Shown one piece after another: positions 17,174 through 31,487 of a DNA stretch of 34,133 bases; positions within the stretch are counted from its first letter, which is position 1, and each line of letters starts with the position of its first letter. The position numbers were made by a program, and so were the translations under genes. The notes under the pieces are model-generated. The model did not search any database. It worked only from the letters and a program-made list of their open reading frames with translations, and was not told where the DNA came from. Location of the stretch: positions 1 to 34,133 of IMG/VR virus record IMGVR_UViG_3300047668_000825; one strand, given 5' to 3'. The DNA is from a virus.

Positions 17174-19681
17174 CTACATTGGCAGCGTGTCTACCACAGC
17201 TTTTGCTATTTTTTGTATGTTAATATTGTCTACGCTTGCCTTCACCATATTTTTTATGTCCTCCGGTACGTCTTTATTCCCCATTTTCAGGTGCTCAGAA
17301 GTGAAGTTAAACCGTTCTGTTATCTGTTTAAACGCCCTTACACGACACACTTTCCCGCCCACTCTCATGTTCATACCCATAGTCAAGCTGACGTCGTTGA
17401 AGCAGTTTCGGTAGAACGCGTCCCTGTGCTCCCGATCGTAGTGCAGTTCGCGCAACACTACGTCTAGTGTGGCACGCAGCTGCGGCACGGTAATGGCATA
17501 CGTCTCTTTCTTGGATAAGTAAGAAGCTATAGCCTCGCACACTCTTGCAGGTAGCGTTTTTCCCTCGTCTATCATGGTAGTTTTTCCTACGCTATCTAGG
17601 GGCAGCATCAACCTGTCGGGGTTTTCCACGACGTGTTCGCGCAGCCAGCGGTACACGTGCTTAGCCCATATCAGTTGTCCGTCCTTGTCGCACAGCTGAA
17701 GCCACTTATTTAATTTAGTGAAATACGCCGTGGGCTTGGGCGTTATAGGGTTGGTTATAACAGACACGCGCCTGTCGTCCTTGGGTATCGCTATGGCGTC
17801 AGCGTGCTGGGTTAGAATCAGGTAGCTGGTACACACGTTAGCCGTCCTGTGCGGCGCGTACTTGATGTTCACCACTGTGGTGATGTTAGTGGTGTCTATA
17901 CGCTGCTTGAGCGTCTCGTAAGCCTTGTGGGGTCCTTTAGAGGTAGTGAAGTCTGCTGATTCTTTAGCCTCAGAAACAGTAACTATCTGCGCGACTTCCC
18001 AATAGTTGTACTTCCCCGCTCCGAGTAGGTCGTCAAAGGGCACGTTAAGCGCGTTATGTGAACCAACTAGCTCGCTGAGCATATTGGCAAGCGTGCTTCG
18101 CCCTATGCCAAACGATGGCGTCACCATCAGTATGCCTGTTCCGCGGAACAGCGGGTTCTGTATTTTCGATGCCAGCCAATCAAGAAAATACTCGCGCTCT
18201 TTTTTGTTAGGCACTAGGTATTGAACGTAGTCTATAAAAGGTTGCACCTCGGCCATGTCGTACTTGCCGTCACCCCACGGAGCGGGCCTGTAGGTGTTGA
18301 TGCACACGGTGGAGTCTCTGGAATTCTGTACAAATCTGTCTTCACCGGGGCGGTGTACGATACCGTGCACATCTTGCCTGTACGGTGACTCTAGCCACAG
18401 CTGCGCGACAGTCATAGACCGAGGCTGAAGCCCCTTGCTGCCGAGTTTAAACGCCATTACAGGCTGGTTAAACTTAGTACGAAACCCGTTTATATCTACT
18501 GGCGTTGGCGTGTTGCCGTCGAGACGCCAAGCGCGGTTGTGTGTCTCGTCAAAACAGTACCTCTCAAATAGCCCAGCAGATGGGTCACGTATGGGTATAG
18601 AGCCAAAATCGCTGTTGCTCAGAATAAAGTGGATAAATTCCTTGGTATGGTTGTCGGCGCAGTGCTCGTGAAAGCAGTTAAAACTGCGTATATAAGGATC
18701 GGCACCGCGGCCAACGGGCTTGTAGCCAGCAGCGTCGTCTCCCGTAGTGTGTCCGTGGCACCACGGGCACCTTATATCTATCCACTCGTTGCCACTATCG
18801 GCAAGCACGCGGTCTTCTCGGTACAGCCACTCTAAAACTGGGTCAATGGCACCGTCTATTGACTGCGCTATAGGCGCATGGGGTAGGTACTTTGTGTGGT
18901 ACTTCGTCGCTAGCGGGGCTAAGGAGCCTTTTACGATCTTTTCCCACGTTACTAGCTCGTCGTTAAGTTCAAAGTTTATATGCTCTAGCAGCTTCTCAGG
19001 CGTCCAGTAGGGGCCTTCCATAGTGTGGAGCTTGACGGGGAACAGCCGCTTGTCAGGGTCTTTCTTACCGTTGACGCCATCAGGCAGTCGGACGATCTTA
19101 GTAGCCATTAGCCCTCCAGCATCGGTGAGCTTCGCCATAGCCGCGGTCTGTATTATTGCCACGGCGTGGTCATAGTTAGTAACAGGCTCGTCAAGCACGT
19201 AACCGTACTGGAAGTTGTCGGGGCTTGACTCGATGATATAGGTGGGTTGGGTCCGTAGCGCTTCAGGTAGGCGGTCAAGCGGTATCTTTGTCCCTATGTC
19301 ATCCAGTACCAGTACGTGAAACGCAGAGAACAGATCGCGCTTGTGCCGCAACGCACCTTCGCTATCTGGCACACAAGTGCTGGCGTTGAAATACATCGCT
19401 CGCGCTTTTGTAGTTCTCCTCATTACTTTGTTGACCAGCGCATCAACTCCACCGGGCGCTGGCATCCCCGGGTTATTGTTAGGAGACGTATAAACTAGCC
19501 TATGCGCTCCGTCTGCTGGTTTCACGTGAAACACAGTATCGAGGAATTCTTGCGCCTGCTCGGGGCTGTACTCGTGCGGTTCGTCACCTATTAAATGCAG
19601 CTTAGGCAGAACTTTTAGCGCTCCGAGGGTGCTGTCTTGTGCTTTTTTTATTTCTTGTGTACTATCCTTAGTGTCAATCAT
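17174..19681 (-). CDS. Primase-helicase (AEP-like primase, zinc site, D5-like SF3 helicase)
   Basis: 835 aa from the ATG at 19681, chosen because AGGAGC stands nine bases upstream; an ATG 48 bases earlier has no such site. N-terminal primase-like region: VLVLDDIG (Asp ~127-128), SSPDNFQYGYVLD and RLPDGVN (~198-204), the pattern of phage archaeo-eukaryotic primases. Cys ~305/308 (CPWC) and 336/341 (CFHEHC) probably bind zinc. The C-terminal helicase has a phosphate-binding loop SFGIGRST (~523-530) in which the usual Lys is Arg, and a DDRR arginine-finger motif. It would open the origin and prime synthesis for the polymerase encoded just upstream. Confidence 0.85.
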   Translation of the reverse strand: MIDTKDSTQEIKKAQDSTLGALKVLPKLHLIGDEPHEYSPEQAQEFLDTVFHVKPADGAHRLVYTSPNNNPGMPAPGGVDALVNKVMRRTTKARAMYFNASTCVPDSEGALRHKRDLFSAFHVLVLDDIGTKIPLDRLPEALRTQPTYIIESSPDNFQYGYVLDEPVTNYDHAVAIIQTAAMAKLTDAGGLMATKIVRLPDGVNGKKDPDKRLFPVKLHTMEGPYWTPEKLLEHINFELNDELVTWEKIVKGSLAPLATKYHTKYLPHAPIAQSIDGAIDPVLEWLYREDRVLADSGNEWIDIRCPWCHGHTTGDDAAGYKPVGRGADPYIRSFNCFHEHCADNHTKEFIHFILSNSDFGSIPIRDPSAGLFERYCFDETHNRAWRLDGNTPTPVDINGFRTKFNQPVMAFKLGSKGLQPRSMTVAQLWLESPYRQDVHGIVHRPGEDRFVQNSRDSTVCINTYRPAPWGDGKYDMAEVQPFIDYVQYLVPNKKEREYFLDWLASKIQNPLFRGTGILMVTPSFGIGRSTLANMLSELVGSHNALNVPFDDLLGAGKYNYWEVAQIVTVSEAKESADFTTSKGPHKAYETLKQRIDTTNITTVVNIKYAPHRTANVCTSYLILTQHADAIAIPKDDRRVSVITNPITPKPTAYFTKLNKWLQLCDKDGQLIWAKHVYRWLREHVVENPDRLMLPLDSVGKTTMIDEGKTLPARVCEAIASYLSKKETYAITVPQLRATLDVVLRELHYDREHRDAFYRNCFNDVSLTMGMNMRVGGKVCRVRAFKQITERFNFTSEHLKMGNKDVPEDIKNMVKASVDNINIQKIAKAVVDTLPM

Positions 19682-19745
19682 GTTTGGTTTGCTCCTGTAC
19701 TTGGTTGATTCTGACTCCGCGCCACACACTCGAAGCCGGTTAATT

Positions 19746-19771: not shown

Positions 19772-21811
19772 CTATTTCCCGTATCTCTGCATTATGTCAG
19801 GCTTCGCGTGTAGCGGCAGCCCCAACGCCCATTCGGGCGGCGTCTCCATAAGCCTTTGTATCTGTTCCGCAGCTTCAGTTGCTTTCTCAGTGGGAACCTC
19901 TAACCCTATTTCATCATGGCAGTGCAGTACAACTAAATCTGACTCCCGTATGGCCCAACGCAATAACGCGGCACAAAAAGCCTGCGTTACGTTCTCTGCC
20001 AGCAGCCCGCGCCACAATCTGAACCGAGGCCACTCAGGGTCGTTGGCTTTTGGCTTCCAGTTTGCTTTTAGAGCGGTCAGCTGCCGTTTGGTTCCGAATT
20101 CGGACTCTACTAGCTCTACACGTGCTTGGGGGTATGTTATGTAATGGTCGCCCGGTAGCTTACACAGCAGCGAGCCTTCCATTAGCGCGGGCACAAAAGT
20201 ATAGCTTACTTTGCCCGCGGTGAATTCCTGTAGCGGGTTGCGTACTGCTAGAATTGCCGCGCTCTCTAAACGGTTCCAGAAGTCTTCGGCCCACGGATTC
20301 TTGCGCCTCCAGTTACGCACGATAGTCTTTACCTCGTGCTCGGGCAGAAACACACCGTAGTTTCTAGCCATAGCGTTGAACGCCCCCGTCGAGCCGCCGA
20401 AGCCTAGTGACAGCACGACCACTTTTCCTACCTGTCGGATGTCGGTCCCCGCGTCGGCGGCGGCGTCTTCGTAGGCGTCCGCTGGTTTAGCGTCAGCCGG
20501 TGCAGCGTCGTAGGCTCGGAACGCTTCTAACCTTTTTTCTGCGCGAGGGTCGTCAGACAGCCACGGTAACGCACGGCTCTCAATTGCCGACCAGTCGTTC
20601 ACCACAAACGAGTGACCTTCAGCGGGAAGGATCGCTGGCCGCAGCAGCTTTGACAGGGTATCCATAACGGTCCCTTCGTCTAGCTTGCCACCAGACGCCA
20701 TAATAGCGCTCAAACTGTCAGCTTCGTGTGCCTTCCAGCAGTCGCGCCGGAAGTTGTGCAGTTGAAGCCCGCGACTTGTGTAGCGGAGAGTAGCCGCGCC
20801 AGCGTACATGAACGCGCCGCGTACACGGTCGTCCCCAGAGTCAGCTCGCTCCACCATGCGTTTAAACTTACTTACGCTGGACTTGTTACCGTCGTCCAGA
20901 GCGGCAATTACGTTGTACACACTGTCAGGTAGCTCTATGTTGCCAGCATCTGCGCGGCCAAGCAGGTTGGCGCGGATGTCTTTAGCCAGCGAGTTCTTGC
21001 GGTCGTCGTCTTTGAAAACTACGGTCAGCTTTTCAGCTTCGTTAGACAGCTGCGGTAGCAGCCACGTTTTTATGCGGGCGTTCTGAGTGTGTTTGGTAAC
21101 GGCGCCGTCGGTCAGTAGCGCCAGCTCCTTACCTATTGCCGCGGTTTCTACGGCAGCAAAACTTGATGCACACTCAGCTAAGGTGCGGTCGATGCGTAGC
21201 CCCCTGTCGTTTATACGCTCGTTGACTAGCCAATCGCCGTGTTCGGTAGGGGACAGTAGCCGACACGCGTTAACTAGCGCCTTGGTAGCCCTTACGTCGT
21301 CAAGGCAGTACACGCCTAAATCGTGTAGGTCAGCAGCGGATTCCCAAAACTGGCCCGTTTCTTTGTGCGGGATGCACAGCTTGCGGATTAGCGCACTGCC
21401 AGATTGATTCTTCCGATGGCCGGCGTTCAGCGCGCGTGTGGCGTCGTCAAGGTTTGCAGGCAGCGCGTTGACTCGGGCCTGTGCGCTTGTGCAGTACCAC
21501 GCGTCTAAGCGTACCTCGGGGAAGCCGTGGTCAGGTGCCGCTATGCACTCCCATATATGCTGGTCGAATCGGGCGTTGTGTGCAGCAACTAAACCGCCGT
21601 CTTTTAAATGCTGGGATATGACATCGCGCAGGTCGTCGGGCAGCGCGTCCTTGGAAAACCACAGCCACTCGCGTTCGTCAGCTGGATCAACAAAGCAAAA
21701 CGCGCCGCATAAAATCTCTGTCGAAGGGTCTTGGCAGTACGTATCACCGCCTGCGGTCAGTAGGTCTACACGGCTCCGTGTCTCCCAATCCACTATAAGT
21801 AGCTTTATCAT
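19772..21811 (-). CDS. polA: Family A DNA polymerase with 3'-5' exonuclease
   Basis: 679 aa from the ATG at 21811 (MIKLLIVDWETRS); an in-frame GTG at 21835 would add eight residues. Exonuclease motifs: DWE (Asp8, Glu10), AHNARFD, and YCLDD. Polymerase motif A DWSAIESR (~406-413), motif B RQVGKVVVLSLGFG (~459-472), motif C HCHDE (~631-634). In motif B the position equal to E. coli Phe762 is Leu and that equal to Tyr766 is Phe. No 5'-3' exonuclease domain, as usual for phage PolA. It replicates the phage genome together with the primase-helicase and ssDNA-binding-like protein in the same operon. Confidence 0.95.
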   Translation of the reverse strand: MIKLLIVDWETRSRVDLLTAGGDTYCQDPSTEILCGAFCFVDPADEREWLWFSKDALPDDLRDVISQHLKDGGLVAAHNARFDQHIWECIAAPDHGFPEVRLDAWYCTSAQARVNALPANLDDATRALNAGHRKNQSGSALIRKLCIPHKETGQFWESAADLHDLGVYCLDDVRATKALVNACRLLSPTEHGDWLVNERINDRGLRIDRTLAECASSFAAVETAAIGKELALLTDGAVTKHTQNARIKTWLLPQLSNEAEKLTVVFKDDDRKNSLAKDIRANLLGRADAGNIELPDSVYNVIAALDDGNKSSVSKFKRMVERADSGDDRVRGAFMYAGAATLRYTSRGLQLHNFRRDCWKAHEADSLSAIMASGGKLDEGTVMDTLSKLLRPAILPAEGHSFVVNDWSAIESRALPWLSDDPRAEKRLEAFRAYDAAPADAKPADAYEDAAADAGTDIRQVGKVVVLSLGFGGSTGAFNAMARNYGVFLPEHEVKTIVRNWRRKNPWAEDFWNRLESAAILAVRNPLQEFTAGKVSYTFVPALMEGSLLCKLPGDHYITYPQARVELVESEFGTKRQLTALKANWKPKANDPEWPRFRLWRGLLAENVTQAFCAALLRWAIRESDLVVLHCHDEIGLEVPTEKATEAAEQIQRLMETPPEWALGLPLHAKPDIMQRYGK

Positions 21812-21841
21812 GTTGTTGGCCTGTCGTTTAAACACAGAGTT

Positions 21842-26950: not shown

Positions 26951-28081
26951 CTATACCTCCGCCGCTTTGCGCTGGTCATCGGTAAACTCAACGTAAATCA
27001 CTGAGTCGCGCACGTCATCGGCAGTCTTGCCGCCGGCCATTGATTTGGCGCAACGGATAGTGTCGCGCGGTGAGAGTATGATGCTTAGCTTGCGTTTTGC
27101 TATGTGCTTTCGTACTGCTTTTATCTCACTGTATACAGTGTCGAATAACTGCCGCGCGTCATCGGCGCCGCCGTACTGTTTAAACGCTTCGCGCCCTAGT
27201 CTCAATTCCAGCTGCTCATCGTATCCAATTTCCAGCTTAGCGAATCTATTGCGGCTGGCACCATCTAGCGGCGCGCGTCCTATATACTCTCTAGTGGCGC
27301 CTTTTCCGATAGTGTTGGCGCATCCAATAGCTAGAAATCCCTCACCTTTTTTGAGCGCTATAGGTGAGTCAGGGAAGGTATAAGAGCCATTTGACATAGC
27401 ATCATTCAGCGCCAATATTGCTTCAGGCGCGCTGGCGTCCATCTCATCAAACAAGAACAGAGCGCCGGTTTCAAAAGCGGTGCGAAATGCCGTTGTGTGA
27501 TAGGCGCCGCCGGCGTCAACAAAGCCGATTAACTCATGCTTAGAGAGTATCGCGCCGGACTTGTAGAAGTCTTTATCTAGCGCGGTCGCTGCCTGTTCTG
27601 CTAGTGTCGTTTTGCCTGAGCCGGCGGGACCGTACAAATACACGTGCTCGTCATTGTTCAATTCAAAGAGCACATCTTCCAGCGCCTTATGCGCGCCGCT
27701 TATAGTCTTTACAGTGTCGCGATTTATTACCTCAATTGTGATAGTCGGGCTGGCGTGCTTTTCTATCATTGCTTGAATCTGATTTTCATCAATTTGGGAC
27801 TCGGGATTGAATCCTTGTAGCTTAGCGTCAATTATCGCCGCTATGGCCGTTTCCAGCGCGTTACGTGCCGGCGCTGGTGCTGGCGCTGGTGTCGGCGCTG
27901 GTGTAGGCGCTGGTGTAGGCGCTGGTGTAGGCGCTGGTGTAGGCGCTGGTGTAGGCGCTGGCGTAGGCTCAGGCGTGCCGGCTATTTCAGCATAGGCGGC
28001 GCGGATAGCGTCACAGCTCATTGTGCGCGTGCTATAACCTTTTTCGATTAAGGCTAGTTTCATTTTTTGCATTGAATTCAT
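26951..28081 (-). CDS. MoxR/CbbQ-like AAA+ ATPase with PTPA linker
   Basis: 376 aa, ATG after AGGAGC. Residues 1-35 form a small helical domain; residues ~36-72 are a run of PTPA repeats; the AAA+ core follows: Walker A GPAGSGKT (151-158), Walker B LFLFDEMDA (Asp212, Glu213), sensor 1 GCANT (~253-257), arginine fingers SRNRF (~276-280). This order is that of the MoxR/CbbQ branch, which remodels or inserts cofactors in partner proteins. The next gene encodes a DUF7192-like probable partner. The linker comes from a 12-bp tandem array and its length is likely to vary between relatives. Role in infection unknown. Confidence 0.85.
   Translation of the reverse strand: MNSMQKMKLALIEKGYSTRTMSCDAIRAAYAEIAGTPEPTPAPTPAPTPAPTPAPTPAPTPAPTPAPAPAPARNALETAIAAIIDAKLQGFNPESQIDENQIQAMIEKHASPTITIEVINRDTVKTISGAHKALEDVLFELNNDEHVYLYGPAGSGKTTLAEQAATALDKDFYKSGAILSKHELIGFVDAGGAYHTTAFRTAFETGALFLFDEMDASAPEAILALNDAMSNGSYTFPDSPIALKKGEGFLAIGCANTIGKGATREYIGRAPLDGASRNRFAKLEIGYDEQLELRLGREAFKQYGGADDARQLFDTVYSEIKAVRKHIAKRKLSIILSPRDTIRCAKSMAGGKTADDVRDSVIYVEFTDDQRKAAEV
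27870..27977 (-). repeat. 12-bp minisatellite coding the PTPA linker
   Basis: Nine consecutive 12-bp units, five of them exactly GGCGCTGGTGTA on the plus strand (27894-27953), flanked by near copies. Read on the minus strand they give Pro-Thr-Pro-Ala or Pro-Ala-Pro-Ala. Length is a multiple of three, so slippage keeps the frame. Confidence 0.9.
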
Positions 28082-28108: not shown

Positions 28109-28684
28109 TTAACTACGGATTATATTGATGGTGGCGCGTGCACATACTGGGCACTCGGCATCGAGCGCTATTCTGTCGGCCCACTTGCGCGACAGATTCG
28201 CTTGAAAGCCACAGCTGTCGCAAACGATCTTGTTGTTGTTGCGTCCCTTCTCTTTCGGTTTCAGATTCAGCTTAGCGTGAGGTATTGGTCCGAGAATTTT
28301 AACGGCGCTCTCTAATACCTCGCGTAGTTGTGGCCCAGCTGTCGTAGCGGTGAATTTTCCTTCTAAGCCGGCCGCTCTTGCTACCTTTGCAAAGTAATTT
28401 CTATGGCCGCTAGCGCAATCGTCTAGCGCGTGTATCAATTCATGTACCAGTACGCCTAGAATTTCGATGCTGTCGTCAATGTGCGCGGTGATGAAAATCT
28501 CATTGTGGCCATCATCGCTGATACGCCTAACGTGGCAAACGCCTAAACGTTTAGACGCCATCGGCGCGACAGATACTCGCACCGGCGGCGCGCTGTGCGG
28601 CGCTATGACTTCATCGGTTAGAATTACGTCAAATAGAATATCGACTGATCTATTTAACCATTGCTCTCTTGTGATTATTTCCAT
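28109..28684 (-). CDS. SprT-like zinc metalloprotease
   Basis: 191 aa, ATG with AGGAGC upstream. Catalytic HELIH at residues 81-85 followed by GH at 93-94 is the SprT/Spartan-type HExxH site; a C-terminal zinc ribbon has CDSC (155, 158) and CPVC (178, 181). Cellular SprT/SPRTN proteins degrade DNA-protein crosslinks; phage members are common beside replication genes but their targets are not known. It is the first gene of the leftward operon starting in the 28.7-29.5 kb control region and its promoter-like sequence is at 28759-28788. Confidence 0.85.
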   Translation of the reverse strand: MEIITREQWLNRSVDILFDVILTDEVIAPHSAPPVRVSVAPMASKRLGVCHVRRISDDGHNEIFITAHIDDSIEILGVLVHELIHALDDCASGHRNYFAKVARAAGLEGKFTATTAGPQLREVLESAVKILGPIPHAKLNLKPKEKGRNNNKIVCDSCGFQANLSRKWADRIALDAECPVCARATINIIRS

Positions 28685-28820: not shown

Positions 28821-29088
28821 TGTTACAAATGTTACGGACTGAAAATCAGCTTGTAACATTTATTCTCTATATAAATCATATACTTATATCAATAGTTACA
28901 AATGTTACATACTTTCTAGGATTTTCTAGGGGCTGATATAAGTGTTTCCAAAGTGGTGCTATATGTTCTGCTCAGGGGAGTTTTGTACACAAAGTCCGTA
29001 ACATTTGTAACAAATGGCGTAAACTATTGAAAACTATAGAGAATAAATGTTACAGTCGATTTTTTTTACTGTAACATTTGTAACATTT
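28821..29088. repeat. Iteron-like GTTACA/TGTAAC repeat cluster
   Basis: Sites in alternating orientation: TGTTACAAATGTTAC (28821-28835), GTAACATTT (28853-28861), GTTACAAATGTTAC (28895-28908), GTAACATTTGTAAC (28998-29011), AAATGTTACAGT (29045-29056), and GTAACATTTGTAACATTT (29071-29088). Within double sites the half-units repeat with a 9-bp period. Two pairs form long inverted repeats: 28827-28835 with 28853-28861, and 29045-29056 with 29068-29079 (12-bp arms). A further TGTTACAG is at 29231. Likely binding sites for an initiator or regulator. Confidence 0.75.
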
Positions 29089-29253
29089 TCCGCCATTTAC
29101 GTGGGATTTTAGACAGTACGCCACGTTCTAACCGTTTAGATACTAGGGTCAGGGTTAAATTATAATCGCTTATAAACGCGCTCAGTGCGTCTAATTACGC
29201 GTCATAGTGTTTAAACGTTTTAACTAAACGTGTTACAGCTGACTAGAATAACC

Positions 29254-29503: not shown

Positions 29504-29995
29504 ATGCAAATAACCGAAGCACAAAAGTACCTCCCACCCGAGTTACTGCTGGATGAGTATCACCCGGCAAACACTCCGTTCTTTAAAAACCTACGCCAGC
29601 TTGAGCAGGCGCTGGTTGCGGCGTCCCATGACGCTGGCGCTCGTGGCACCGCTATAGCCAAGATGCACCTACGCGGCATGAAAAACGTAGACATAGCAAA
29701 AGAGTTCGACACGACCGGCGACTCTATATCCCACACACTACACAGCAAGAAAGTAGCGAAGATAACTTCACTCTTGTTCTACTTGCAGCAGCTACGCGAA
29801 GGCCCTAACTTAGAGCAGCGCAAGCGAACCTTGTGGGAGATAACGCAAGACAACCAGCACGATGAGCCTAAGACGTCTATATCAGCTATTCAGGAGATGA
29901 ATCGTATGGACGGTATAGGTAAGGACACGAAGGACACTAAGATAGAAGTCACTATAAACAACCAGCTGCTGCCGAAAGGCGCGCTTGACCAGTAA
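29504..29995 (+). CDS. terS: Terminase small subunit
   Basis: 163 aa. Small terminases bind the packaging site and recruit the large subunit. Residues ~55-82 (MHLRGMKNVDIAKEFDTTGDSISHTL) form a helix-turn-helix as in many TerS proteins; residues ~85-110 look like an oligomerisation helix, and the C-terminal tail is polar. It is followed by one tiny gene and then the large terminase, the usual order. The ATG has no visible ribosome-binding site; a promoter-like sequence ends seven bases upstream, so its message may be leaderless. It is the first gene of the late operon. Confidence 0.75.
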   Translation: MQITEAQKYLPPELLLDEYHPANTPFFKNLRQLEQALVAASHDAGARGTAIAKMHLRGMKNVDIAKEFDTTGDSISHTLHSKKVAKITSLLFYLQQLREGPNLEQRKRTLWEITQDNQHDEPKTSISAIQEMNRMDGIGKDTKDTKIEVTINNQLLPKGALDQ

Positions 29996-30007: not shown

Positions 30008-30157
30008 ATGCCTGTAGTAAACGGAAAAGAGTACGCCTACACCCCCGCGGGAATAGCAGCGGCACAGAAGGCTAAGTCAAAACAGCAACCCGGTATGCCA
30101 AAAGAGAAAGCGATGGCTGCTGCGTTACGCACGGCGGGCAAAATACGTAGTGTCTGA
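30008..30157 (+). CDS. 49-aa conserved small phage protein
   Basis: ATG at 30008 after GGAG, stop at 30157, overlapping the large terminase GTG by eight bases. It begins MPVVNGKEYAYTPAGIAAA and is rich in Ala, Lys and Gln. Tiny proteins with the V-N-G-K-x-Y-x-Y-T-P-x-G-x-A-A pattern are frequent in phage packaging clusters. Overlap and ribosome-binding site support a real gene. Function is unknown; basic charge would allow DNA binding. Confidence 0.7.
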   Translation: MPVVNGKEYAYTPAGIAAAQKAKSKQQPGMPKEKAMAAALRTAGKIRSV

Positions 30158-31487
30158 GTTTACCTTAGACTACGTACCAAGACAGGCGTTCAGGCCGTTT
30201 CATCAGCGTAGCGAACGCTGGGCGGCGCTGGTGTGTCACAGGCGTGCGGGCAAGACGGTAGCGTGTATACACGAAGCCGTAGTGCGCGCGCTGTATACAA
30301 ACAAGAAAAACGCGCGTTACGCGTATGTCGCACCGTACTACAAGCAAGCTAAGGACGTAGCGTGGCAGTACCTTAAAGAAGCAACCAAAGGTATTGCGGT
30401 TGAAACACGCGAAAGCGACCTGCGAGTGATACTGCCCAACAACCAATGGATAACGCTGTACGGGGCCGACAATCCTGACGCGCTGCGAGGCATCTATTTA
30501 GACGGGGTGATCTTGGACGAGTACGGCGACTGTCGCCCATCCTTGTGGGCTGAGGTGCTGCTGCCCACCCTAACTGACCGTAAAGGCTGGGCCGTGTTCA
30601 TCGGCACGCCAAAAGGTAAAAATCACTTTTACGAAATAATACAGCGCGCCATACGTGAAGACACGTGGTTCAATCTGACCTTGAAGGCTAGCGAGTCAGG
30701 GCTATTAGACGACGAAGACCTGCTAGAGCTAAAGGCGCTAATGGAAGAGTCACAGTTCGCGCAAGAGTTTGAATGTGACTTTACCGCCGCGGTAAAAGGC
30801 ACCTATTACGCGTCTATGATCCAGAACATGGAGGCTGAGGGCAAGATAGGCAAAAAGCCAGACCTGTACGACCCTATGGAGCCTGTCCACGCCAGTATGG
30901 ACCTCGGGCGTAAAGACAGCACGGCAGTGTGGTTCTGGCAAGAGCACGGAGACACTATAAATTTGATCGACTATATAGAACTCCGTGGAGAGATAATTGA
31001 AGACCACATTAAAATGTTCCGAAGCAAGCCGTATAAACTTGAGCGCCTATGGGTACCACATGACGCGGTAGCCCACACCGTCCAAACACGTAGGTCGTCT
31101 ATAGAGCAGTTCCAAGACGCTAATCTTCCTGTGGCAAAAGTGCCGCACCTTGGCAGGCAACAAGGTATTGATGCAGCTAGAATGATGCTGCCGCAGTGCA
31201 GGTTTGATTCTAATAAGTGCCATGACGGTATTGAAGCGCTTAGATCGTATAAAAAAGAGTTTAATGAGCTAACTAAAACCTTCCGCGAGACGCCGCTGCA
31301 CAATTGGGCGTCTGACGGAGCGGATTCGTTTAGATATTTGAGCTTGGTTGCTAAGCAGAAAAAGAATACACTATCCGAGCCTGCGCCTACCAAACTTGAC
31401 GACAAGCAGGTAGCTTACACCTTAGATGACCTATACGCCTCTCAGTCTAAAGGCCCTGTATTGTCGATAACTCGCCGGAGAATGTAG
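30150..31487 (+). CDS. terL: Terminase large subunit
   Basis: 445 aa, GTG start overlapping the upstream gene by eight bases. ATPase: Walker A CHRRAGKT (29-36), Walker B GVILDEYGD (Asp123, Glu124), coupling-type IGTPKGKNHF (151-160). Nuclease: first Asp in HASMDLGRKDST (Asp251), second in WVPHDA (Asp305), third probably in ASDGADSFRY near the C-terminus. It drives DNA into the prohead through the portal and cuts the concatemer. The circular map of the window agrees with headful packaging, though it does not prove it. It is followed by the portal gene after two bases. Confidence 0.95.
   Translation: MSEFTLDYVPRQAFRPFHQRSERWAALVCHRRAGKTVACIHEAVVRALYTNKKNARYAYVAPYYKQAKDVAWQYLKEATKGIAVETRESDLRVILPNNQWITLYGADNPDALRGIYLDGVILDEYGDCRPSLWAEVLLPTLTDRKGWAVFIGTPKGKNHFYEIIQRAIREDTWFNLTLKASESGLLDDEDLLELKALMEESQFAQEFECDFTAAVKGTYYASMIQNMEAEGKIGKKPDLYDPMEPVHASMDLGRKDSTAVWFWQEHGDTINLIDYIELRGEIIEDHIKMFRSKPYKLERLWVPHDAVAHTVQTRRSSIEQFQDANLPVAKVPHLGRQQGIDAARMMLPQCRFDSNKCHDGIEALRSYKKEFNELTKTFRETPLHNWASDGADSFRYLSLVAKQKKNTLSEPAPTKLDDKQVAYTLDDLYASQSKGPVLSITRRRM

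What the first reader, a model, noticed from the sequence alone, without database searches (positions are those of the whole stretch)
28821..29238. Alternating GTTACA/TGTAAC iterons: likely origin or master switch
Seven related sites lie between the divergent operons, alternating in orientation, several as doubled half-sites with a 9-bp period. Two pairs form inverted repeats, one with 12-bp arms around an 11-base T-rich spacer. No gene explains them, and the region is AT-rich. Iterons next to early genes usually mark an initiator or regulator binding region. A small extra match (GTAACAT) lies in the capsid leader near 1502.
Basis: partly seen in the sequence, partly recalled or inferred. Interest (0 to 1): 0.7.

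Follow-up and report, generated by a model that had tools for sequence, protein, structure and literature searches.

The report
Phage replication origin with mirrored repeats
The repeats are almost certainly the spot where this bacterial virus starts copying its DNA: ten copies of a short word in a mirror-image layout that matches the mapped origins of a Streptococcus phage and of an E. coli phage satellite, so it is a new example of a known kind of origin, and the layout looks usable for finding such origins in unannotated viruses.

Summary
Ten GTTAC units (28821-29085) form six blocks, A(>>) B(<) C(>>) | D(<<) E(>) F(<<), with a 9-bp period inside the tandem blocks and one exact dyad centre at 28953 for all three block pairs. 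No shuffled genome reproduces this (0/100), nor do 69 control loci (638 kb).

The same signed layout and spacing occur in two origins with experimental support: the Streptococcus phage Sfi21 ori (also GTTAC) and the ori of the E. coli satellite EcCICFT073 (iteron TCTACC). Arrays with this core are widespread: at least 120 viral contigs against 5 for a reversed control. Where a superfamily-3 primase-helicase gene lies within 5 kb, the array is usually directly 3' of it (28 of 33). Relatives of the window phage carry such arrays with diverged iterons, at the same place or at the 3' end of their primase gene.

Best explanation: the phage's replication origin, bound by its 851-aa primase-helicase (17174-19729). 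The binding protein is inferred, and origin activity was not measured. 'Master switch' is disfavoured as the sole function. New member of a known kind; unusual in lying about 9 kb from the initiator gene, beside the terminase operon.

The parts
28821..28838 (+). Block A: two tandem iterons TGTTACAAA TGTTACGGA (>>)
28853..28858 (-). Block B: single opposed iteron GTAACA (<)
28860..28893 (.). AT-rich segment (85% AT) between B and C, candidate unwinding element
   Evidence: for composition; role inferred
28894..28911 (+). Block C: two tandem iterons AGTTACAAA TGTTACATA (>>)
28910..28997 (.). Central spacer, 59% AT; dyad centre of all blocks at 28953
   Evidence: symmetry from block coordinates and (I1)
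28998..29012 (-). Block D: two tandem iterons GTAACATTT GTAACA (<<)
29048..29053 (+). Block E: single opposed iteron TGTTAC (>)
29071..29085 (-). Block F: two tandem iterons GTAACATTT GTAACA (<<)
   Evidence: E and F also make the 12-bp-arm inverted repeat 29045-29079 (I18)
29231..29237 (+). Isolated TGTTACA outside the dyad; may be a weak extra site or chance
17174..19729 (-). Inferred initiator: 851-aa primase-helicase (AEP/RepB-type primase region, SF3/DUF5906-like helicase region, C-terminal tail)
   Evidence: role as iteron binder inferred
19772..21835 (-). Family A DNA polymerase, probable extender of the primers
28109..28684 (-). SprT-like gene, first gene of the leftward replication operon next to the array
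29504..29995 (+). First gene of the rightward late operon, probable small terminase (no family match; position before TerL, 58% identical relative at the same place in L006)
30150..31487 (+). Terminase large subunit, used to find relatives

Best explanation
The array is the replication origin of this phage, of the iteron type used by replicons with a superfamily-3 primase-helicase initiator (Streptococcus phage Sfi21 ori, SaPI/PICI ori). Proposed mechanism: the 851-aa primase-helicase (17174-19729) binds the 9-bp GTTAC iterons, probably through its C-terminal tail. It assembles as two complexes, probably hexamers, facing each other on the two mirror-image half-origins A-B-C and D-E-F. It melts the neighbouring AT-rich DNA, loads itself, unwinds outwards, and its primase domain makes the first primers, which the phage family-A polymerase extends in both directions. 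Shown here: anatomy, exact dyad, non-randomness, identity of layout with two experimentally supported origins, association of such arrays with these initiator genes, turnover of the iteron word with retention of layout. Inferred: binding by this protein, double-hexamer loading, melting site, bidirectional start. A side role in repressing the two flanking promoters is possible.
For: Signed layout: window >><>><<><<; Sfi21 annotated origin ><<>><<><>< with the same GTTAC core and near-equal offsets ([quoted passage not shown] EcCICFT073 ori >><>>><<><< (PMC6092414: plasmid maintenance needs both pri and ori); L114 and L107 same layout. Layout kept with other iterons: L370 GTTCCT directly 3' of a VapE helicase and L383 TCCGGG. 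Conserved at the same locus in L006 and L013. Arrays widespread: at least 120 viral contigs vs 5 reversed control, 35 genome contigs; in whole genomes the reversed control gave 0. SF3 primase-helicase within 5 kb in 33 of 70 non-redundant arrays, array on its 3' side in 28. Record-level match to DUF5906 or VapE: 21 of 39 array records vs 4 of 45 controls. Inner spacer 68% AT vs 52% locus mean, 66 of 70 above. Homologues of the window's own primase carry an array with another iteron directly 3' of the gene (L084/L086), and a structural-gene relative, G040, has one over the 3' end of its primase gene.
Against: No origin activity, binding or read-depth data. The window array is about 9 kb from its primase gene, unlike the usual directly-3' position. 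Its central spacer is only 59% AT; the AT-rich stretch lies between B and C. 27 of 70 arrays have neither a detected helicase nor a terminase within the fetched 5 kb (fragments and weak detection explain some; several have a helicase elsewhere in the record). Most of the closer homologues of the window primase (L390-L397) show no exact-hexamer array in the available DNA. C-terminal domains of array-adjacent helicases could not be aligned to the window's and the structure model was unusable. Control records were relatives by terminase or AAA gene, not random.
Confidence: 0.88

Rival explanations
1. Operator or master switch: the iterons bind a regulator that controls the divergent leftward (replication) and rightward (terminase) promoters, and replication starts elsewhere.
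For: The array lies exactly between divergent operons. A weak promoter-like match overlaps block E at 29027-29056, but matches are no more frequent than in shuffles. Some array loci have a MazE/AbrB-like gene next to them (L236).
Against: In L013 the genes on both sides read the same way. In 28 of 33 loci the array is directly 3' of a primase-helicase gene. The layout equals two experimentally supported origins.
Confidence: 0.06
2. Packaging site (pac/cos) bound by the small terminase, whose gene starts about 420 bp to the right.
For: Terminase genes lie within 5 kb of 17 of 70 non-redundant arrays, and the window array is beside the terminase operon.
Against: 26 arrays have a helicase but no terminase nearby against 10 the other way, and helicases are much closer (mostly 0-170 bp vs 174-4560 bp). 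In G040 the array is at the primase gene, with none upstream of its terminase.
Confidence: 0.03
3. Origin, but the iterons are read by a different protein (a host factor or a small phage protein), and the primase-helicase is recruited by it.
For: The same TGTTAC core is used next to helicases of several sequence families whose C-terminal parts do not align. The primase gene is 9 kb away.
Against: In SaPI and SCCmec systems the initiator helicase itself binds the iterons through its C-terminal domain (PMC7581432). Among array neighbours the helicase families stand out by closeness and number; no small protein family is shared as widely across unrelated loci.
Confidence: 0.12

Closest known systems
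Streptococcus thermophilus phage Sfi21 origin of replication (302-bp element 3' of orf382 primase, NC_000872)
   Same: GTTAC core; 11 GTTAC units in 298 bp; tandem, opposed and mirrored blocks at near-identical offsets; AT-rich middle. Full phage, not a satellite.
   Different: 8-bp instead of 9-bp tandem period; directly 3' of its putative primase; the outer blocks are inverted pairs rather than tandems.
E. coli PICI EcCICFT073 origin
   Same: Same signed order >><>>><<><<, 9-bp period in most tandem pairs, two iteron sets.
   Different: Iteron TCTACC, shorter central spacer, directly 3' of pri, in a satellite.
SaPI origins with Rep/PriRep1 initiators
   Same: Short iterons in two sets bound by an AEP/SF3 initiator helicase (described in PMC7581432). 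D5-type array neighbours match PDB 7ola over most of their length.
   Different: SaPI iteron sequences not examined here; that 7ola is SaPI5 PriRep1 is from memory.
Bacillus phage phi105, region 3' of its DNA primase
   Same: TGTTAC pairs flanking an AT-rich core, 9-bp period.
   Different: Only six units; outer blocks reduced; directly 3' of primase.
Phage P4 ori/crr with alpha protein
   Same: Primase-helicase with a winged-helix origin-binding domain reading repeats (PMC4234260, PMC10516667).
   Different: Repeat sequence and layout not compared here; P4 repeat details are from memory.
NrS-1 phage primase-polymerase
   Same: Closest solved structure to the window protein's helicase part (PDB 6k9c; identity of 6k9c as NrS-1 from memory and PMC7102993).
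   Different: NrS-1 uses two copies of an 8-nt recognition site (PMC7102993), not an iteron array; the window protein has R in place of the Walker A lysine.

Membership tests
SF3 primase-helicase iteron origin (SaPI/PICI/Sfi21 type) | Two sets of short iterons facing each other | tested here: met
   Blocks A-B-C and D-E-F, dyad centre 28953
SF3 primase-helicase iteron origin (SaPI/PICI/Sfi21 type) | Iteron sets flank an AT-rich region | tested here: inconclusive
   Whole array 71% AT; B-C gap 85%; central C-D spacer only 59%. Other arrays: inner spacer 68% vs 52%
SF3 primase-helicase iteron origin (SaPI/PICI/Sfi21 type) | Replicon encodes an SF3-type primase-helicase | tested here: met
   851-aa protein; PHROG primases, DUF5906 just under cut-off, PDB 6k9c E=8e-15 with its alignment
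SF3 primase-helicase iteron origin (SaPI/PICI/Sfi21 type) | Array directly 3' of the initiator gene (typical, not invariant) | tested here: not met
   Array about 9 kb from the gene, no hexamer array at the gene's 3' end. 5 of 33 surveyed loci also depart from the 3' position, so treated as typical rather than defining
SF3 primase-helicase iteron origin (SaPI/PICI/Sfi21 type) | Initiator binds the iterons | not testable with these tools
   Needs a binding assay
SF3 primase-helicase iteron origin (SaPI/PICI/Sfi21 type) | Replication starts there / supports a plasmid in cis | not testable with these tools
   Needs read depth, 2D gels or a plasmid test; skew is dominated by gene direction
PICI (as an element) | Satellite that depends on a helper phage for its particle | tested here: not met
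   The window carries terminase, portal and capsid relatives and many further late-size ORFs; it is a phage, not a PICI
pac/cos site | Travels with terminase genes | tested here: not met
   26 vs 10 loci favour helicase over terminase; G040 array is at the primase

The most novel reading that the evidence does not exclude
The six-block signed layout (>> < >> | << > <<), independent of the iteron word, is a general loading platform for SF3 primase-helicases in phages, satellites and integrated elements of many bacterial phyla: the word changes (GTTAC, GTTCCT, TCTACC, TCCGGG, AGGGA, GTTGCC) while the geometry is kept, so origins can be called in unannotated genomes by geometry alone. [quoted passage not shown] these data say it is shared widely by ordinary phages.
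Probability: 0.6. Interest if true: 0.6.

Novelty: new member of a known kind. Interest (0 to 1): 0.46.

Why it matters
Origins of most environmental phages are unmapped. The window shows a recognisable signature that ties an uncultured phage to origins with experimental support, and an any-word geometry detector found it with no hits in shuffled DNA or in 638 kb of control loci. That gives a directly testable rule for locating origins and pairing them with their initiators, and suggests a fixed geometry of two facing helicase complexes whose spacing is conserved while the recognised word changes. It also bears on origin-based phage resistance, as reported for the Sfi21 element (PMC6356513).

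Tried and rejected
Direct DNA similarity of the region to sequenced phages: no match. GC/AT skew for an origin: only follows gene direction. AlphaFold model of the primase: mean pLDDT 33, discarded, so no fold search was run. Profile comparison of C-terminal domains between helicase families and the window protein: no significant similarity. Archaeal array hits (L235, L236, L215, L216): no helicase identified, left undecided. Some hits of the single-strand triple pattern lie in coding tandem repeats (long phage proteins, e.g. L097, L157), so only the inverted pattern was used for statistics. Literature searches for GTTAC iterons found no paper describing them as a phage origin class; the 1998 Sfi21 origin paper itself is not held, only papers citing it. 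EcCICFT073 was located by trial in the CFT073 genome.

Full report
WHAT IS THERE. The region 28821-29085 holds ten GTTAC/GTAAC units in six blocks: A 28821+28830 (>>), B 28853 (<), C 28894+28903 (>>), D 28998+29007 (<<), E 29048 (>), F 29071+29080 (<<). The pairs A-F, B-E and C-D share one centre, 28953, so the array is one interrupted palindrome of about 265 bp; the repeat finder reports the 99-nt arms as 74% complementary. All four 9-bp GTTAC doublets of the window are here, and the hexamer count (9 in 300 bp) exceeds every one of 5000 shuffles (maximum 4). A detector for the full six-block layout with any 5-mer finds only this site in the window, nothing in 100 shuffled genomes, nothing in 2000 local shuffles and nothing in 69 control loci of 638 kb.

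SURROUNDINGS. Left (minus strand): SprT-like, AAA, DUF7192, DUF2800/exonuclease, nucleotidyltransferase-like, family-A polymerase and, last, the 851-aa primase-helicase at 17174-19729. Right (plus strand): probable small terminase, a 49-aa ORF, TerL, portal. The right operon is therefore late, not early. No ORF covers the array.

RELATIVES BY STRUCTURAL GENES. L006 (TerL 79%) and L013 (TerL 56%) have GTTAC arrays upstream of their terminase genes, each with its own 9-mer (TGTTACGAG, TGTTACCTA). In L013 the genes on both sides read in the same direction, so the array is not tied to a divergent promoter pair. L008 (TerL 61%) has at this place a 9-bp array with another core (AGGGGCAAT). G040/L014 (capsid 69%, TerL 54%) has instead an array of GTTGCCA iterons, ordered >> < >> | <<, over the 3' end of its DUF5906 primase gene.

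RELATIVES BY PRIMASE. Homologues of the window primase in L084/L086 (about 31% identity) carry a two-orientation array (core AGGGA) directly 3' of the gene. Closer homologues L390-L397 (33-37%) share the exonuclease-polymerase-primase module but show no exact-hexamer array in the DNA held; several of these loci are cut off.

HOW COMMON. Around 70 non-redundant arrays, further GTTAC units are about ten times commoner than control words (227 vs 19 at 30-250 bp), and the inner spacer is AT-rich (68% vs 52%).

WHICH GENE GOES WITH IT. A Pfam scan of all large neighbours, made without choosing families beforehand, ranks DUF5906 first and VapE-like third, with other primase domains high and terminase next. 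In 33 of 70 arrays an SF3 primase-helicase gene lies within 5 kb, and in 28 of these the array is on its 3' side, mostly within 170 bp. DUF5906 or VapE matches occur in 21 of 39 array records against 4 of 45 control records. Starting instead from VapE genes in a bacterial class, with no regard to arrays, 3 of 12 genes above cut-off have an array immediately 3': two with TGTTAC and one (L370) with TGTTCCTAC in the same six-block layout; L383 shows the layout with TCCGGG near a further, weaker match.

YARDSTICKS. The EcCICFT073 origin, for which plasmid maintenance requires both pri and ori (PMC6092414), lies directly 3' of pri and reads >><>>><<><< with iteron TCTACC. The Sfi21 record annotates a 302-bp origin 3' of its primase; it holds 11 GTTAC units at offsets 0 8 31 75 83 159 167 213 226 232 246, against 0 9 31 73 82 176 185 227 249 258 in the window. 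PMC6356513 reports, citing Foley et al. [quoted passage not shown] Phage phi105 has TGTTAC pairs around an AT-rich core directly 3' of its primase.

MECHANISM. In SaPI and SCCmec systems the initiator helicase binds iterons with its C-terminal domain and is thought to load as two hexamers (PMC7581432). P4 alpha and relatives carry a winged-helix origin-binding tail (PMC10516667). By analogy the 851-aa protein reads the GTTAC units and the mirror-image halves load two facing helicases. This is inference: the C-terminal domain could not be classified.

ALTERNATIVES. A pure operator is disfavoured by 3'-of-helicase placement and by L013. A packaging site is disfavoured by the helicase/terminase distance comparison and by G040. 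A different reader protein with the primase-helicase recruited to it remains possible; it is a variant of the origin reading, so its probability overlaps with that of the best explanation. Repression of flanking promoters as a second role is not excluded.

VERDICT. Replication origin of a known kind, with high confidence; the initiator assignment is probable. The distance of 9 kb between origin and initiator gene is unusual, though a minority of surveyed arrays also lie away from the 3' end of the gene. The broader lesson, that geometry is conserved while the iteron word turns over across phages and satellites, extends what PMC6092414 described for PICIs only.

Noticed in passing
window, 19 sites (e.g. 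1482, 7075, 12361, 28770, 29209, 29312, 29351, 32254): The palindrome GTTTAAAC occurs 19 times against about 0.5 expected, the most over-represented 8-mer of the window, spread through genes and intergenic DNA; also frequent in L008, L009 and L396 but absent from the G040 stretches read. Meaning unknown.
   Followed up: partly
window 17174-19729, residues 541-546: The primase-helicase Walker A motif reads GIGRST, with arginine where the catalytic lysine normally is; homologues L083, L085, L086 also have G-I/T-GRS.
   Followed up: no
L008:787-890 and L009:311-415: About ten tandem copies of an 11-bp unit aggtCATGACt (containing the palindrome GTCATGAC) lie upstream of the terminase genes of two relatives; not seen in the window.
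   Followed up: no
L236:238-485 and L235 (Thermococcus MAGs): GTTAC inverted arrays occur in archaeal contigs, one beside a MazE/AbrB-like gene, with no primase-helicase identified; could be a different use of the same word.
   Followed up: partly
L349-L353: The reversed control pattern hit five viral contigs that all share one 105-bp span, apparently one phage family with its own inverted repeat.
   Followed up: no
L097, L145, L157 and similar: Runs of GTAACAnnn in long phage proteins (tandem coding repeats such as GGTAACACT) mimic the single-strand iteron pattern and are probably not origins.
   Followed up: partly
window about 27651-28000: CCAGCG/CAGCGC occurs ten times in 350 bp inside the AAA ATPase gene, and GGCGCTGG is 24-fold over-represented in the window.
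   Followed up: no
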